DNA of 64,000 nucleotides, from positions 5,599,501 to 5,663,500 of the forward strand of contig NZ_CP107811.1 of the NCBI RefSeq assembly GCF_036346105.1, given 5' to 3'. Under the pieces are notes generated by a model, which was not told where the DNA came from, did not search any database, and saw only the letters and a list, made by a program, of their open reading frames with translations. The DNA is from Streptomyces sp. NBC_00539. GTDB taxonomy: Bacteria; Actinomycetota; Actinomycetes; Streptomycetales; Streptomycetaceae. The translations under genes and the position numbers were made by a program. Of this stretch, positions 33,232 to 54,432 are shown piece after piece (the stretch's first letter is position 1; every line of letters begins with the position of its first letter).

Positions 33232-33348
33232 GCTGCGAGGGTATTACGGGGCGGATGATCCGCTGCGCGCGCCCCTGTGGGGGACCCCGCTGAACGCTCG
33301 GTGCCCGCCCCGCCCTCCCGCTGTCCGTCCGGCATGCGACCCGATGGC

Positions 33349-33398
33349 GTCCGCTATGCGGACAGAATGGAACGCTGAGCCGATCGGTCTGGTTTACT
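33349..33398 (+). promoter_or_regulatory. Promoter region of the metNIQ leader
   Basis: TTTACT (33393-33398) lies seven bases before the ATG of the leader ORF at 33406, so the transcript should be leaderless. The -35 region is weak. A perfect dyad GTCCGC-TAT-GCGGAC (33349-33363) sits at about -45, where an activator or repressor could bind. Confidence 0.5.
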
Positions 33399-33405
33399 GG
33401 GGCCC

Positions 33406-33492
33406 ATGACCACGACGAGCAGCCGCACCCTTGCGACCGAGGCGACGATGACGCCCGGTGCTCGTTGTATGTGTCGAATGTGCGCCTTCTGA
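33406..33492 (+). CDS. Cys/Met-rich leader peptide upstream of metNIQ
   Basis: A 28-codon ORF ending in RCMCRMCAF: three Cys and two Met among its last eight residues, encoded TGT-ATG-TGT-CGA-ATG-TGC. It starts seven bases after a -10 hexamer and lacks a ribosome binding site, like known leaderless actinobacterial uORFs. It lies 204 bases before the methionine importer metN. Ribosome stalling at the Cys/Met run when sulfur amino acids are scarce would fit attenuation. A 7-base-pair hairpin follows at 33509-33530. The regulatory role is inferred. Confidence 0.7.
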   Translation: MTTTSSRTLATEATMTPGARCMCRMCAF

Positions 33493-33508
33493 GGGCCCCT
33501 TCCCCGCA

Positions 33509-33530
33509 GTCTCGCGCCCCGAAGCGAGAC
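33509..33530 (+). other. Hairpin downstream of the leader ORF
   Basis: GTCTCGC (33509-33515) pairs with GCGAGAC (33524-33530) around an 8-base loop, 16 bases after the leader stop codon. It has no T tract. It may be part of an attenuator or a translation-sensing structure before metN. The 33531-33696 stretch also contains the 10-base palindrome GTGCCGGCAC but no other gene. Confidence 0.4.
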
Positions 33531-33696
33531 CGGCCGAGCCCCGTGGACACCCTCGTGTGACACCCGGAAACGCTCCCGCCCCGCGCATGCGCCCGCCTCA
33601 CCCTTTTGTGACGGTGTGACCCGTATCGCGTGCCAGATGTTTGCCCCGTGCCGGCACACCCCGCTGCGCCGCGCACTCGACAGCGACGGAAATCCT

Positions 33697-34782
33697 GTGA
33701 TCACCACATCGGGCCTCACGAAGGTCTACCAGTCCCGTGGCCGCGAGGTCACCGCCCTGGACGGCGTCGACCTCCACGTAAAGGAGGGAGAGGTGTACGG
33801 GGTCATCGGCCAGAGCGGCGCCGGCAAGTCCTCCCTCATCCGCTGCGTGAACCTGCTGGAGCGCCCCACCAGCGGCACGGTGACCGTCGACGGCGTCGAC
33901 CTCACCGCGCTCGCCGGTCGCGGCCGCCGCGCCGGCAAGGAGCTCCGCCAGGCCCGCAGCCGCATCGGCATGGTCTTCCAGCACTTCAACCTGCTGTCCT
34001 CGCGCACCGTCCAGGGCAACATCGAGCTGCCCCTGGAGATCCTCGGCGTCTCCGGCCGCGAACGCTCCCGCAAGGCCGCCGAACTCCTCGACCTGGTCGG
34101 CCTCGCCGACAAGGCGAAGGCCTACCCCGGCCAGCTCTCCGGCGGCCAGAAGCAGCGCGTCGGGATCGCCCGCGCCCTGGCCGGCGACCCCAAGGTGCTC
34201 CTGTCCGACGAGGCCACCAGCGCCCTCGACCCCGAGACCACCCGCTCCATCCTCCAGCTGCTGCGCGACCTGAACCGCCAGCTCGGCCTGACCGTGCTGC
34301 TGATCACGCACGAGATGGACGTGGTCAAGGCCGTCTGCGACTCCGCCGCGCTGATGAAGGGCGGCCGGATCATCGAGTCCGGCACCGTCCCGGAACTGCT
34401 GGCCACCCCCGGCTCCGAACTCGCCGGCGAACTCTTCCCCGTCAGCGGCGCCGCCACCGGCCCCGACCGCACGGTCATCGACGTCACCTTCCACGGCGAG
34501 GCCGCGACCCGGCCGGTCATCTCCCAGCTCGCCCGGACGTACAACATCGACATCTCGATCCTGGGCGCGGCGATGGACACCGTCGCCGGCAAGCAGATCG
34601 GCCGGATGCGCATCGAGCTGCCCGGCCGCTACGAGGAGAACGTCGTCCCCGTCGGCTTCCTGCGCGAGCAGGGCCTCCAGGTCGACGTGGTCGAAGAGGA
34701 CGCGGACGCGGCGCGGGACGTGGACGAAGACGTGATCGCAGACGCCGAGCTCGCCGAGCTCGTCAAGGACGGTGCCAAGTGA
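33697..34782 (+). CDS. metN: Methionine ABC transporter ATP-binding protein
   Basis: A 361-residue ATPase. Walker A is GQSGAGKS, the ABC signature LSGGQKQR, and Walker B VLLSDEATSALD. The C-terminal NIL domain (about residues 270-345) binds methionine and inhibits transport when the cell is replete. GTG 33697 is chosen from family length; an in-frame GTG at 33616 would add 27 residues (including ACQMFAPC). It overlaps metI by four bases (GTGA). Confidence 0.95.
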   Translation: MITTSGLTKVYQSRGREVTALDGVDLHVKEGEVYGVIGQSGAGKSSLIRCVNLLERPTSGTVTVDGVDLTALAGRGRRAGKELRQARSRIGMVFQHFNLLSSRTVQGNIELPLEILGVSGRERSRKAAELLDLVGLADKAKAYPGQLSGGQKQRVGIARALAGDPKVLLSDEATSALDPETTRSILQLLRDLNRQLGLTVLLITHEMDVVKAVCDSAALMKGGRIIESGTVPELLATPGSELAGELFPVSGAATGPDRTVIDVTFHGEAATRPVISQLARTYNIDISILGAAMDTVAGKQIGRMRIELPGRYEENVVPVGFLREQGLQVDVVEEDADAARDVDEDVIADAELAELVKDGAK

Positions 34783-35447
34783 CCTGGTCGGAAATGCAGC
34801 CCCTGCTCACCCAGGGCACCTACGACACCCTCTACATGGTGCTGTGGTCGACGCTGGTCACCGTCGCCGGCGGACTGCCCATCGGCATCCTCCTCGTCCT
34901 CACCGACCGCGGCGGCCTGCTCCAGAACCAGCCGCTCAACAAGGCGCTCGGCGTGATCGTGAACATAGGCCGGTCGCTGCCGTTCATCATCCTGCTGATC
35001 GCGCTGATCCCCGTCACCACCGCCGTCGTCGGCACGTTCATCGGCCCCACCGCCATGATCGTGCCGCTCGCCATCGGCGCCGTCCCCTTCTTCGCCCGGC
35101 TCGTCGAGACGGCCGTCCGCGAGGTGGACCACGGCCTCGTCGAAGCCGTCGAGTCCATGGGCGGCGGTGTCCCGACCCTGGTCGGCAAGGTCCTGCTGCC
35201 GCAGGCCCTGCCCTCCCTGATCGCCGGCGTCACCACCACCGTCATCACCCTCGTCGGCTACTCGGCGATGGCGGGCGCGGTCGGCGGCGAAGGACTCGGC
35301 TCCAAGGCCATCACCTACGGCTTCCAGCGCTTCGAGACCGGGTTCATGGTCGCCACCGTCGTCGTGCTGATCGCACTCGTCACCGTGATCCAGCTGATCG
35401 GCGACGGCGTCGTACGTCTCCTCGCCCGCCGCGGCCGCACCACCTGA
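34779..35447 (+). CDS. metI: Methionine ABC transporter permease
   Basis: A 222-residue membrane protein with five spans and the cytoplasmic coupling motif region VEAVESMGGG. It forms the transport channel as a dimer with two MetN subunits. GTG 34779 overlaps the metN stop codon. The D/L-methionine role is assigned from the MetN NIL domain and the following NlpA-type lipoprotein. Confidence 0.95.
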   Translation: MTWSEMQPLLTQGTYDTLYMVLWSTLVTVAGGLPIGILLVLTDRGGLLQNQPLNKALGVIVNIGRSLPFIILLIALIPVTTAVVGTFIGPTAMIVPLAIGAVPFFARLVETAVREVDHGLVEAVESMGGGVPTLVGKVLLPQALPSLIAGVTTTVITLVGYSAMAGAVGGEGLGSKAITYGFQRFETGFMVATVVVLIALVTVIQLIGDGVVRLLARRGRTT

Positions 35448-35563
35448 GCCGTCACGGCCCCCCAGACCCACCCCCACAGAGCCCGCACTTGTCGTGCTTG
35501 GGCCACCACCCCGCAAGTCCTGCGCACGATCCGCGCACTTGCAAGCAAGGAAAGGCACTCTTC

Positions 35564-36427
35564 GTGCGTAAGAACATCAAGCTCACCGCCTTCGCCGCCG
35601 CCTCCGCCGCGCTCGCCCTCGGCCTCACCGCCTGCGGCAGCTCCTCGGACCCGTCCTCCACCAAGGCCGACGGCGGCAAGGTCGACGCGAGCAAGCCGCT
35701 CGTCATCGCGGCCTCCCCGAGCCCCCACGCCGACATCCTGAACTTCGTCAAGGACAAGCTGGCGGCCAAGGACGGGCTCAAGCTGGAGGTGAAGGAGTTC
35801 ACCGACTACGTCCTGCCCAACACCGCCACCGAGCAGGGCCAGGTCGACGGCAACTACTTCCAGCACAAGCCGTACCTCGACGACTTCAACAAGAAGAACG
35901 GCACCCACATCGTGCCCGTCGTCAACGTGCACCTGGAACCCCTCGGCCTCTACTCCAAGAAGGTCAAGGCCATCGGTGACATCAAGGCCGGCCAGACGAT
36001 CGCCGTCCCCAACGACACCACCAACGAGGGCCGCGCGCTCCAGCTGCTCGCCGCCAACAACCTGATCGCCCTCAAGGAGGGTGTCGGCACCGGCGCCAAG
36101 CTGTCCGACATCACCGACAAGAAGGGCCTGGAGTTCAAGGAGCTGGAGGCCGCCACGGTCCCGCGCGCCCTGAACGACGTCGACGCCGCCGTCATCAACG
36201 GCAACTACGCCCTGGAAGCCAAGCTCGCGCCCGCCAAGGACGCCCTGATCCTGGAGAAGGCCGACGGCAACCCCTACGCCAACTTCCTCGCGGTCAAGGA
36301 CGGCAACCAGAGCGACCCGCGCATCCAGAAGCTCGCCAAGCTCCTGAACTCCGACGAGGTCAAGAAGTTCATCGAGGACAAGTACCAGGGCTCGGTCACC
36401 CCGGCCTTCGGCGCTCCCGCGGCCTGA
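35564..36427 (+). CDS. metQ: Methionine-binding lipoprotein (NlpA family)
   Basis: A 287-residue lipoprotein with signal peptide and lipobox LTAC at about residues 21-24, so Cys24 is lipidated. The mature part is an NlpA-type binding protein (NYFQHKPYLDDFN, VPNDTTNEGRALQLL, VINGNYAL). It captures methionine outside the membrane for MetNI. GTG 35564 follows GGAAAGG. Two CCGCACTTG-like repeats lie in the 116-base gap after metI. A strong terminator follows. Confidence 0.95.
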   Translation: MRKNIKLTAFAAASAALALGLTACGSSSDPSSTKADGGKVDASKPLVIAASPSPHADILNFVKDKLAAKDGLKLEVKEFTDYVLPNTATEQGQVDGNYFQHKPYLDDFNKKNGTHIVPVVNVHLEPLGLYSKKVKAIGDIKAGQTIAVPNDTTNEGRALQLLAANNLIALKEGVGTGAKLSDITDKKGLEFKELEAATVPRALNDVDAAVINGNYALEAKLAPAKDALILEKADGNPYANFLAVKDGNQSDPRIQKLAKLLNSDEVKKFIEDKYQGSVTPAFGAPAA

Positions 36428-46705: not shown

Positions 46706-46777
46706 TGCGCGATACTGGGATTGAACCAGTGACCTCTTCCGTGTCAGGGAAGCGCTCTCCCGCTGAGCTAATCGCGC
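46706..46777 (-). tRNA. tRNA-Val (GAC), copy 3 of the operon
   Basis: A 72-base cloverleaf with acceptor GCGCGAT/ATCGCGC, discriminator A, anticodon loop CTGACAC (anticodon GAC), and T-loop TTCAATC. CCA is not encoded. It is identical to the copy at 46828-46899. Confidence 0.95.
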
Positions 46778-46827
46778 GGGATCACGGCTCTGGAGCCGCA
46801 GGTGGAGCAGGTGTTACGGATGCTGCG

Positions 46828-46899
46828 TGCGCGATACTGGGATTGAACCAGTGACCTCTTCCGTGTCAGGGAAGCGCTCTCCCGCTGAGCTAATCGCGC
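46828..46899 (-). tRNA. tRNA-Val (GAC), copy 2 of the operon
   Basis: The same 72-base sequence as 46706-46777. The spacer between the two copies contains GGCTC-TG-GAGCC, a small hairpin that may guide processing. Confidence 0.95.
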
Positions 46900-46919
46900 G
46901 GGTGGTCCTCGCGGACCAG

Positions 46920-46991
46920 TGGACGATACTGGGATTGAACCAGTGACCTCTTCCGTGTCAGGGAAGCGCTCTCCCGCTGAGCTAATCGTCC
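46920..46991 (-). tRNA. tRNA-Val (GAC), copy 1 with changed acceptor stem
   Basis: Anticodon GAC and the whole body match the other two copies, but the acceptor stem is GGACGAT/ATCGTCC instead of GCGCGAT/ATCGCGC. Base pairing is kept. The spacer to copy 2 holds GGTCC-TCGC-GGACC. Confidence 0.95.
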
Positions 46992-46992
46992 T

Positions 46993-47066
46993 TGGAGGTG
47001 GAGACGGGATTTGAACCCGTGTAGACGGCTTTGCAGGCCGTTGCCTCGCCTCTCGGCCACTCCACC
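46993..47066 (-). tRNA. tRNA-Cys (GCA) with encoded CCA
   Basis: Acceptor GGTGGAG/CTCCACC, discriminator T, then CCA encoded in the DNA. The anticodon loop CTGCAAA gives GCA. Its 3' end is one base from the 5' end of the next tRNA-Val, so processing must be tight. Confidence 0.95.
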
Positions 47067-47104
47067 AGGAGCTGCGGGGGTTCTCGGGAAGACCCCCCAC
47101 TTCG

Positions 47105-47177
<73 letters not shown>

Positions 47178-53543: not shown

Positions 53544-53615
53544 GGGCGATTAGCTCAGTGGGAGAGCACTTCGTTCACACCGAAGGGGTCACTGGTTCGA
53601 ACCCAGTATCGCCCA
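53544..53615 (+). tRNA. tRNA-Val (CAC), first copy
   Basis: A 72-base cloverleaf: acceptor GGGCGAT/ATCGCCC, discriminator A, anticodon loop TTCACAC (CAC), T-loop TTCGAAC. CCA is not encoded. TAATGT (53525-53530) is a likely -10. It has its own terminator. Confidence 0.95.
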
Positions 53616-54360: not shown

Positions 54361-54432
54361 GGGCGATTAGCTCAGCGGGAGAGCACTTCGTTCACACCGA
54401 AGGGGTCACTGGTTCGATCCCAGTATCGCCCA
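54361..54432 (+). tRNA. tRNA-Val (CAC), second copy
   Basis: A 72-base cloverleaf differing from 53544-53615 at two positions, in the D-loop (AGCGGG for AGTGGG) and the T-loop (TTCGATC for TTCGAAC). Anticodon CAC. CCA is not encoded. Confidence 0.95.

What the first reader, a model, noticed from the sequence alone, without database searches (positions are those of the whole stretch)
33406..33492. Leaderless Cys/Met-rich leader peptide (…RCMCRMCAF) before the methionine importer metNIQ
A 28-codon ORF ends with three Cys and two Met among its last eight residues, starts seven bases after a -10 hexamer with no ribosome binding site, and precedes metN by 204 bases. Cysteine-responsive leaderless uORFs are described in mycobacteria. 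Here both Cys and Met codons are clustered before a methionine transporter, suggesting an attenuator reading sulfur amino acid supply. A hairpin lies 16 bases after its stop.
Basis: partly seen in the sequence, partly recalled or inferred. Interest (0 to 1): 0.82.

Follow-up and report, generated by a model that had tools for sequence, protein, structure and literature searches.

The report
Cys/Met leader ORF before metNIQ
A tiny leaderless gene rich in cysteine and methionine codons, folded into a conserved RNA structure, sits in front of the methionine importer of Streptomyces and its relatives and probably tells the cell when these sulfur amino acids run short.

Summary
In detail: the ORF lies at 33406-33492, 7 nt after TTTACT, 204 nt before metN. 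It is not new: the orthologue is in print as metL of S. lividans, leaderless by RNA-seq (PMC8079986).

A leader of this kind precedes 126 of 128 metN genes read first, 21 of 22 in other Streptomycetaceae genera and 7 of 7 in another family. In 16 more distant loci it was absent or doubtful.

What is new is the RNA. Codons 3-21 fold into a three-way junction (z -4.8). Variation sits mostly in its loops, and pN/pS is 1.6 against 0.27 in metN. Some compensatory pairs appear when other genera are added. The Cys/Met codons at the end lie in or beside the closing stem. In two of three groups this stretch also complements the metN ribosome-binding site.

Best model: ribosomes stalled on scarce Cys/Met codons free metN for translation. 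The RBS branch is only moderately supported. Rho termination in the C-rich spacer is a serious rival. No U-tract terminator was found.

The parts
33349..33363 (.). Palindrome GTCCG-CTATG-CGGAC, 57 to 43 nt upstream of the ATG; probable operator
   Evidence: Found (one arm allowed shortened) in 88 of 120 Streptomyces-type upstream regions long enough to test, 86 of them 56-58 nt before the ATG; 4 of 10 group K; 0 of 1 group A; 44 too short to test. No shuffle control was run
33390..33398 (+). Extended -10 element TGg-TTTACT; no recognisable -35
   Evidence: Sequence. TTTACT lies 6-7 nt before ATG in 167 of 178 leaders. No sigma-70-type two-hexamer match. Orthologue called leaderless from RNA-seq in S. 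lividans (PMC8079986)
33406..33492 (+). Leader ORF (metL orthologue), 28 codons + TGA
33412..33420 (+). P1 5' strand ACGACGAGC
   Evidence: Fold; pair counts
33424..33435 (+). P2 hairpin CGCA-CCCU-UGCG
33436..33459 (+). P3 hairpin ACCG-A-GGCG / CGCC-CGGU with bulged A
33460..33468 (+). P1 3' strand GCU CGU UGU, containing the first Cys codon; also complementary to the metN SD region
33463..33483 (+). Control codons CGT TGT ATG TGT CGA ATG TGC (R C M C R M C)
   Evidence: Arg codon before the constant Met is CGA in 127 of 130 distinct ORFs
33491..33499 (+). GAGGGCCCC box overlapping and following the stop codon
   Evidence: Nearly invariant among 60 aligned Streptomyces-type leaders; function unknown
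33510..33529 (+). P5 hairpin TCTCGC-GCCCCGAA-GCGAGA, no U-tract
   Evidence: CCCCGAAG within 100 nt of the stop in 83 of 84, 13 of 21 and 12 of 19 distinct leaders of groups S, A and K
33493..33666 (+). C-rich, G-poor spacer (76 C, 49 G); possible Rho-binding region
   Evidence: C exceeds G in 154 of 154 spacers; C/G 1.55 against 0.76-1.30 in 18 other upstream gaps of the window; 1.45% of 4000 random window stretches reach it
33670..33696 (+). metN ribosome-binding region CGCGCACTCGACAGCGACGGAAATCCT, complementary to leader nt 51-81
33697..34782 (+). metN (ABC ATPase with NIL domain)
   Evidence: Pfam; best NCBIfam match ABC_MetN, 376.5 bits, below its cut-off of 499.7
34779..35447 (+). metI (permease)
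   Evidence: Pfam BPD_transp_1
35549..36427 (+). metQ (NlpA-type lipoprotein; start codon not settled)
   Evidence: Pfam Lipoprotein_9

Best explanation
It is a ribosome-read attenuator of metNIQ made of one stretch of leaderless mRNA that does two jobs. Its codons 3-21 fold into a three-way junction whose closing stem (P1) joins the 5' end of the message to the segment that holds, or directly abuts, the Cys/Met control codons. The last 8 codons test whether Cys-tRNA and Met-tRNA are charged. When Cys and Met are plentiful, the ribosome runs to the stop and the control-codon segment is free to pair, with P1 and (in Streptomyces and group A) with the region -27 to -2 before metN that holds its Shine-Dalgarno sequence, so metN is poorly translated and perhaps Rho stops the transcript. 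When Cys or Met is short, a ribosome stalled there covers that segment, the metN site opens and the importer is made. Shown here: the ORF, its conservation, the constraint on the three-way junction, the Cys/Met codons. From print: the leaderless start in S. lividans. Inferred: stalling, the RBS switch, the direction of control.
For: Conservation before metN in 126 of 128, 21 of 22 and 7 of 7 in another family with quite different sequence. Cys 24% and Met 16% of the last 12 residues against 2.3% and 0.4% of the 12 after the start (in the two other frames of that stretch Cys is 18% and 8%, Met 0%). Codon insertions often bring further Cys/Met (RLMC, RMCRMC, SMMRCC), though also Pro, Gln, Leu, Arg. 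Three-way junction z -4.76, 0 of 200 shuffles. Over nt 4-63, 11 of 18 unpaired and 4 of 42 paired positions vary in more than 5% of 60 sequences, permutation p 5e-5. pN/pS 1.59 against 0.27 in metN, pS five times lower than in metN. Compensation: 25 cells changed on both sides, 0 of 500 shuffles, including AGC to AAC with GCT to GTT (S5N with A19V). Pairing of the 5' end with the control-codon segment recurs with other letters in several group-K leaders (L315, L320, L325, L327, L331) and in the other family (TCGACAC/GTGTCGA, L341 and L344). The best duplex of leader and metN RBS falls within leader nt 48-87 in 14 of 14 Streptomyces and group-A cases tried (7 of 105 and 7 of 12 pairs on hand). 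Translation attenuation is reported for cysteine leaders of M. smegmatis (passages of PMC13236596 and PMC9031893).
Against: RBS pairing is not proven: shuffled p is 0.017-0.32 in the 7 Streptomyces cases, 0.003-0.22 in the 7 of group A and 0.08-0.96 in 7 of group K. Over all pairs only 14 of 105, 6 of 12 and 1 of 16 reach z below -2, and group-K leaders pair better with foreign RBSs than with their own. The codon before CGA varies without compensation at metN. In whole-leader folds the last 11 codons pair with the block at -31 to -17 with mean probability 0.32, 0.10 and 0.00 in the three groups, and with the SD itself 0.12, 0.20 and 0.02. The last seven codons also have pN/pS above 1 (1.63), so the persistence of Cys/Met rests on composition and distant comparison, not on purifying selection within Streptomyces. 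Within Streptomyces the stems hardly vary and covariation does not exceed shuffles (38 of 500 reach the score, 108 of 500 the number of pairs). RNAalifold gave P2, P3 and P5 but a different, broken register for P1. In one search the number of pair types does not stand out (124 of 500), and most double changes are one swap shared by group A. P1 and the RBS compete for one strand, so the order of states is not settled. My literature searches gave no expression data under Cys/Met starvation.
Confidence: 0.6

Rival explanations
1. Rho-dependent transcription attenuation: the long untranslated C-rich spacer after the leader stop is a Rho-binding region, and the position of the leader ribosome or the folds P1/P5 decide whether Rho terminates before metN.
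For: C exceeds G in 154 of 154 spacers, mean C/G 1.5-1.6; 1.55 here, above all 18 other upstream gaps that I could define in the window; no intrinsic terminator found. The same idea was raised for cysteine leaders of Mycobacterium in PMC1262725 (passages). metQIN mRNA rises 2.3-5.2 fold under oxidative stress in S. coelicolor (PMC4991794, passages), which fits control of RNA amount or of the promoter.
Against: No Rho data; composition alone is weak evidence; a ribosome stalled upstream would not obviously hide a spacer of 108-322 nt; does not explain the complementarity to the metN RBS.
Confidence: 0.27
2. The element is an RNA sensor of a metabolite (riboswitch-like); the ORF is there but its codons are not the sensor.
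For: pN/pS above 1 and near-invariant stems over codons 2-21; conserved hairpin P5 beyond the ORF.
Against: Unpaired positions, where ligands usually bind (general knowledge), are the variable ones. No Rfam match even at E 5. Cys/Met codons and the frame persist where the nucleotide sequence is quite different.
Confidence: 0.07
3. A nascent-peptide arrest sequence: the constant R-M-(C/R) near the C-terminus stalls the ribosome in response to a metabolite such as SAM, not for want of charged tRNA.
For: R-M is within the last 8 residues of all 130 distinct leaders counted, with the rare codon CGA for the Arg in 127.
Against: Residues around it change freely (MCAF, MRAF, MCDR, MCHC, MCD); the rest of the peptide is unconstrained. 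'RM' was a selection filter for 53 of the 178 leaders.
Confidence: 0.05
4. Control lies in the promoter: the palindrome at -57 binds a regulator, and the leader is of minor importance.
For: Palindrome in 88 of 120 Streptomyces-type upstream regions, nearly always at a fixed distance from the -10; a SenR site is predicted 31 nt before metN of S. coelicolor (PMC4991794, passages).
Against: Does not explain conservation of the leader ORF and its fold; more likely an additional layer.
Confidence: 0.05

Closest known systems
metL leader of Streptomyces lividans TK24 (SLIV_29928, PMC8079986, Table 4; passages seen)
   Same: Orthologue: same gene downstream, leaderless, MSTTSDRTPATEATTTPGARCMCRRMCAF; the identical peptide is in L155, L165 and L183. 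Called a methionine-dependent leader, termination 'unclear'.
   Different: In the passages seen: one genome, no comparison, no defined fold ('several hairpin structures'), 'several methionines and threonines' named, cysteine not. Here: order-wide distribution, three-way junction, pN/pS above 1, RBS complementarity.
Polycysteine leaderless ORFs of mycobacteria (Canestrari 2020; paper not held; known from passages of PMC9031893 and PMC13236596)
   Same: Leaderless short ORF with Cys codons, sulfur amino acid genes downstream, attenuation of translation reported.
   Different: Here Cys codons are interleaved with Met and Arg, the target is the methionine importer, and the ORF itself is a conserved folded RNA.
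LEU element before leuA in Actinobacteria (PMC1262725; passages seen)
   Same: Leader ORF embedded in a conserved RNA fold; [quoted passage not shown] mechanism unsettled.
   Different: Leucine; pseudoknot; sequence relation not tested.
Classical trp/ilv-type transcription attenuators
   Same: Control codons in a leader ORF, alternative pairing of the control-codon segment.
   Different: No terminator hairpin with U-tract, no identified antiterminator.

Membership tests
metL leader (S. lividans) | Leaderless ORF of about 29 codons before metNIQ ending RCMCR(R)MCAF | tested here: met
   identical published peptide found in three of the loci
Classical transcription attenuator | Leader ORF with clustered control codons | tested here: met
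Classical transcription attenuator | Intrinsic terminator and competing antiterminator between leader and gene | tested here: not met
   0 terminator-like sites; no T-run of 5 or more in 154 spacers
Leaderless polycysteine attenuators | Start codon at the transcription start | tested here: inconclusive
   -10 at 6-7 nt in 167 of 178; start reported only for the S. lividans orthologue (PMC8079986)
Leaderless polycysteine attenuators | Contiguous run of Cys codons | tested here: not met
   C-M-C-R-M-C pattern
Leaderless polycysteine attenuators | Downstream ribosome-binding site sequestered unless a ribosome stalls in the Cys codons | tested here: inconclusive
   Complementarity in two of three groups, weak statistics
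Leaderless polycysteine attenuators | Response to cysteine limitation | not testable with these tools
   Needs expression data
LEU element | Control codons pair with the Shine-Dalgarno box | tested here: inconclusive
LEU element | Conserved pseudoknot | not tested
   Only nested folds and duplexes were computed
Known riboswitches and leaders in Rfam 15 | Match to a family model | tested here: not met
   No match at 33300-33760 up to E 5; none at gathering level there

The most novel reading that the evidence does not exclude
One stretch of mRNA with three mutually exclusive partners: the control codons for both sulfur amino acids pair with the message's own first codons (P1), pair with the metN ribosome-binding site, or lie inside a ribosome that waits for Cys- or Met-tRNA, with a built-in slow codon (CGA, constant before the last Met) setting the pause. 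It would be a two-input (Cys and Met) translational switch written into the coding sequence of a leaderless ORF, kept across an order while the peptide itself evolves freely.
Probability: 0.3. Interest if true: 0.75.

Novelty: new variant of a known kind. Interest (0 to 1): 0.58.

Why it matters
It turns a leader peptide described in one strain into a family- and order-wide regulatory element with a defined RNA fold, and gives testable pairs. It would show how a leaderless ORF can be both sensor and switch in GC-rich bacteria, where print calls the mode of regulation of cys and leuA leaders unknown (PMC1262725) and the termination of metL unclear (PMC8079986).

Tried and rejected
Chance ORF: rejected by conservation. 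Ordinary conserved small protein: rejected by pN/pS 1.6 and by variation lying mostly in RNA loops; no NCBIfam family matches the peptide. Intrinsic terminator: none found. Known Rfam element: none. A second copy of the element before another gene: none convincing. In the own genome one strong match, three more at E 1.1-3.2. Other weak second matches: G002 4.5e-4 and G005 0.033, both partial; G366 0.0039, G345 0.029, G333 0.042 and G225 0.049. These were not followed up. A shorter pattern, TGYATGTGYNGNATGTGY, hit 59 of 148 genomes of the order draw and its reversed control 5 of 148. An ECF-sigma promoter (GGAAC...GTT, motif recalled) was considered and dropped: upstream of GTCTGn-TTTACT little but the palindrome is conserved. 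Pairing of the stop region with the P5 loop (CUUC..GGGC with GCCCCGAAG) was considered and not pursued: the Phe codon changes without change of the loop.

Literature searches: 'leader peptide/Streptomyces/cysteine/leaderless/attenuation', 'metNIQ+Streptomyces', 'uORF/cysteine/leaderless/mycobacteria/attenuation', 'SCO1559', 'ribulon', 'Streptomyces/ribosome profiling/leader peptide', 'polycysteine/leaderless/mycobacteria'. In these listings and the passages I opened, only PMC8079986 describes this leader. The library holds open-licence papers only.

Limits. Of the 192 metN-bearing genomes, the 110 best-scoring were read; some loci are near-identical. Of the 80 loci, 18 were read and four more (two of the 18 read twice). 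Groups S, A and K were assigned by peptide patterns, not by a tree; one Streptomyces leader (L211) fell into A, and K holds genera besides Kitasatospora. The 40 loci L279-L318 were chosen with the RNA model and say nothing on frequency. The 30 genomes were those with weak or no model match; 8 of them had no metN at E 1e-90. The filter (at least 4 Cys/Met in the last 14 residues) missed the leader of L365 that one search shows, so its 'none' can be a miss. One metN (L319) keeps the control codons without a recognisable start.

Full report
The object. TTTACT at 33393-33398, preceded by TGg, puts the probable transcription start on the A of its ATG. metN, metI and metQ follow, metN 204 nt after the stop. 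The genome has 7.5 Mb; that it is a Streptomyces is inferred from the named relatives.

It is in print. PMC8079986 (passages seen) lists metL of S. lividans TK24, MSTTSDRTPATEATTTPGARCMCRRMCAF, before metNIQ, leaderless by RNA-seq, with termination 'unclear'. The same peptide came out of my own draw in L155, L165 and L183. The finding is therefore a new sighting of a described but uncharacterised leader.

How widespread. The nucleotide pattern for RCMCRMCAF is in 60 of 199 Streptomyces genomes, the reversed control in 0 of 199. Looking instead from metN: 192 of 199 genomes have metN. I read the upstream region of the 110 best-scoring of these (L034-L063 and, L144-L223) plus 18 of the 80 loci. 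A leaderless ORF ending in a Cys/Met cluster is there in 71 of 128 by the strict pattern and in 55 of the remaining 57 by a looser one; the two without are Actinomadura and Agrococcus. Of 30 genomes of other Streptomycetaceae genera with weak or no model match, 22 gave a metN; 21 of the 22 have a leader, L319 lacks a start. In another family of the order 7 of 7 metN genes have one with quite different sequence, for example MIDTQSSRTSAATKAPRMMCGCMPSCRMCSC, behind TATAGT with a 7-nt spacer (spacer printed for 5 of the 7). Of 16 further metN loci read (L366-L375, L079, L081, L115, L130, L132, L133), two (L366, L079) show a doubtful Cys/Met-rich frame and 14 none. That filter can miss: it missed the leader of L365, a Streptomyces, which has an insertion. 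A covariance model of the element finds it in 81 of 121 Streptomycetaceae genomes, 14 of 17 genera (E 0.1; the weakest matches are uncertain), as a rule one strong copy per genome; G002 has two that go with its two metN matches.

What is conserved. Among 60 Streptomyces-type leaders the nucleotide sequence is nearly fixed, third positions included. Codons that two window genes almost never use (CTT 0 of 78, GCT 0 of 115, TGT 0 of 6, CGA 2 of 66) are nearly fixed in the leader. Nucleotides 1-64 fold into a three-way junction: P1 nt 7-15/55-63, P2 19-22/27-30, P3 31-39/47-54 with one bulged A, -28.9 kcal/mol, z -4.76, none of 200 shuffles as good; with 130 nt the junction stays, z -2.80, 2 of 200. 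Each rare third-position U of codons 9, 18, 19, 20 and 21 pairs with an A in it (seen in the sequence). Over nt 4-63, 11 of 18 unpaired but 4 of 42 paired positions vary in more than 5% of 60 sequences (permutation p 5e-5), and codon positions 1 and 2 vary more than position 3. Over 58 distinct 28-codon ORFs pN/pS is 1.59 (pS 0.065), 1.63 both in codons 2-21 and in codons 22-28, against 0.27 (pS 0.32) for metN codons 2-20 of the same loci. GC-rich codon bias alone would also quiet third positions, but metN shares that bias. So selection in codons 2-21 acts on RNA, and the amino acids there are by-products. The last codons are no better kept as peptide within Streptomyces.

Covariation. Within Streptomyces the stems are too constant to tell (38 of 500 shuffles reach the score), and RNAalifold returned P2, P3 and P5 but another, broken register for P1. 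With 19 leaders of group A (mostly other genera of the family) added to 18 of Streptomyces type, 25 cells are changed on both sides, reached by 0 of 500 shuffles, 5 pairs have such changes (12 of 500), pair types do not stand out (124 of 500), and sliding the partners destroys pairing. The main swap is G-C to A-U in P1, made by AGC to AAC (Ser to Asn) and GCT to GTT (Ala to Val) together; it may be a single event. The G-C to A-U swap at the end of P3 occurs in three sequences of both groups (L075, L292, L308). In several group-K leaders the same 5' strand pairs instead with the codons just before the last Met (L315, L320, L325, L327, L331), and in the other family TCGACAC after the start pairs with GTGTCGA over the control codons (L341, L344). 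These last two rest on single-sequence folds. The rule 'the first codons pair with the control codons' would thus outlive the letters.

The control codons. In 130 distinct ORFs, Cys makes up 24% and Met 16% of the last 12 residues against 2.3% and 0.4% of the 12 after the start; the other two frames of that end hold 18% and 8% Cys and no Met; all 130 have at least one Cys and one Met (the 53 leaders of the second set were picked with 'RM' as a filter, the 125 of the first were not). Inserted codons are often Arg, Met, Leu or Cys, sometimes Pro or Gln. Cys number varies from 1 to 5; R-M is constant, with CGA for Arg in 127 of 130. In 25 distinct ORFs the residue after this Met is Arg instead of Cys. 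So Met is the more constant signal, Cys the more numerous.

A switch at the metN start. The region before metN is the other conserved stretch. It is complementary to leader nt 51-81, that is to the 3' arm of P1 plus the control codons: in the window the 27 nt before metN pair almost throughout. In the best duplex of the whole leader with the metN RBS, the leader part lies within nt 48-87 in all 14 Streptomyces and group-A cases tried (7 of 105 and 7 of 12 pairs on hand), with shuffled p 0.017-0.32 and 0.003-0.22. Against this: 7 group-K cases give nothing (p 0.08-0.96); over all pairs only 14 of 105, 6 of 12 and 1 of 16 reach z below -2, and cognate pairs beat foreign ones in two groups but not in the third; the codon before CGA changes without compensation; whole-leader folds put only 0.32, 0.10 and 0.00 of the pairing of the block at -31 to -17 there, and 0.12, 0.20 and 0.02 of that of the SD. 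I therefore hold RBS masking as the likeliest single mechanism, not as shown. It has the right sign: a ribosome held at nt 61-78 would cover the masking strand and turn metN on. Passages of PMC13236596 and PMC9031893 say that cysteine leaders of M. smegmatis act by translation attenuation, from Canestrari 2020, which I could not read.

The rival. No U-tract terminator was found, but the 108-322 nt spacer is C-rich and G-poor in 154 of 154 cases, and at C/G 1.55 exceeds all 18 other upstream gaps I could define in the window (0.76-1.30), the composition of Rho-binding regions (general knowledge). Both could act together: an unread metN is open to Rho. metQIN mRNA rises 2.3-5.2 fold under oxidative stress in S. 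coelicolor, with cysteine genes, and a SenR site is predicted 31 nt before metN (PMC4991794, passages), so there is control at the mRNA level too.

Verdict. New here, as far as the seven searches listed show, are that fold, the distribution, the RBS complementarity and the operator-like palindrome. I rate it a new variant of a known kind.

Noticed in passing
33349-33363: Palindrome GTCCG-N5-CGGAC, often with a CTATN centre, in 88 of 120 Streptomyces-type upstream regions long enough to test, 86 of them 56-58 nt before the ATG; probable operator of an unknown regulator over an extended -10 promoter.
   Followed up: partly
L262 1501-1515 (own genome C1:4613773): With the pattern GTCCGNWATNCGGACA only one other site is in the own genome, about 80 nt upstream of an APC-type amino acid permease (best NCBIfam match GABA permease, below cut-off). 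Possibly the same regulator. Nine of 21 genomes searched have such sites, not all beside metN.
   Followed up: partly
33475-33477: The rare codon CGA is constant before the last Met (127 of 130 distinct leaders), also in leaders of another family. P1 explains it only in some groups; a slow codon is possible. Unexplained.
   Followed up: partly
33510-33529: Hairpin with loop GCCCCGAA, no U-tract, kept in 83 of 84 group S, 13 of 21 group A and 12 of 19 group K leaders as the motif CCCCGAAG. Function unexplained.
   Followed up: partly
own genome, C1:142 and C1:7068188, C2:123 and C2:436815: The 15-mer GTCCGCGAAGCGGAC lies within 160 nt of both ends of both contigs, and at four places inside C1; the end copies may be part of inverted terminal repeats of linear replicons.
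   Followed up: no
46706-47177 (-), 53544-53615 (+), 54361-54432 (+): Seven tRNA genes, five of them in a cluster on the minus strand.
   Followed up: no
L319 (G365): A metN whose leader seems to have lost its 5' half: control codons RMCRMCA remain in an open frame but no TTTACT/ATG.
   Followed up: partly
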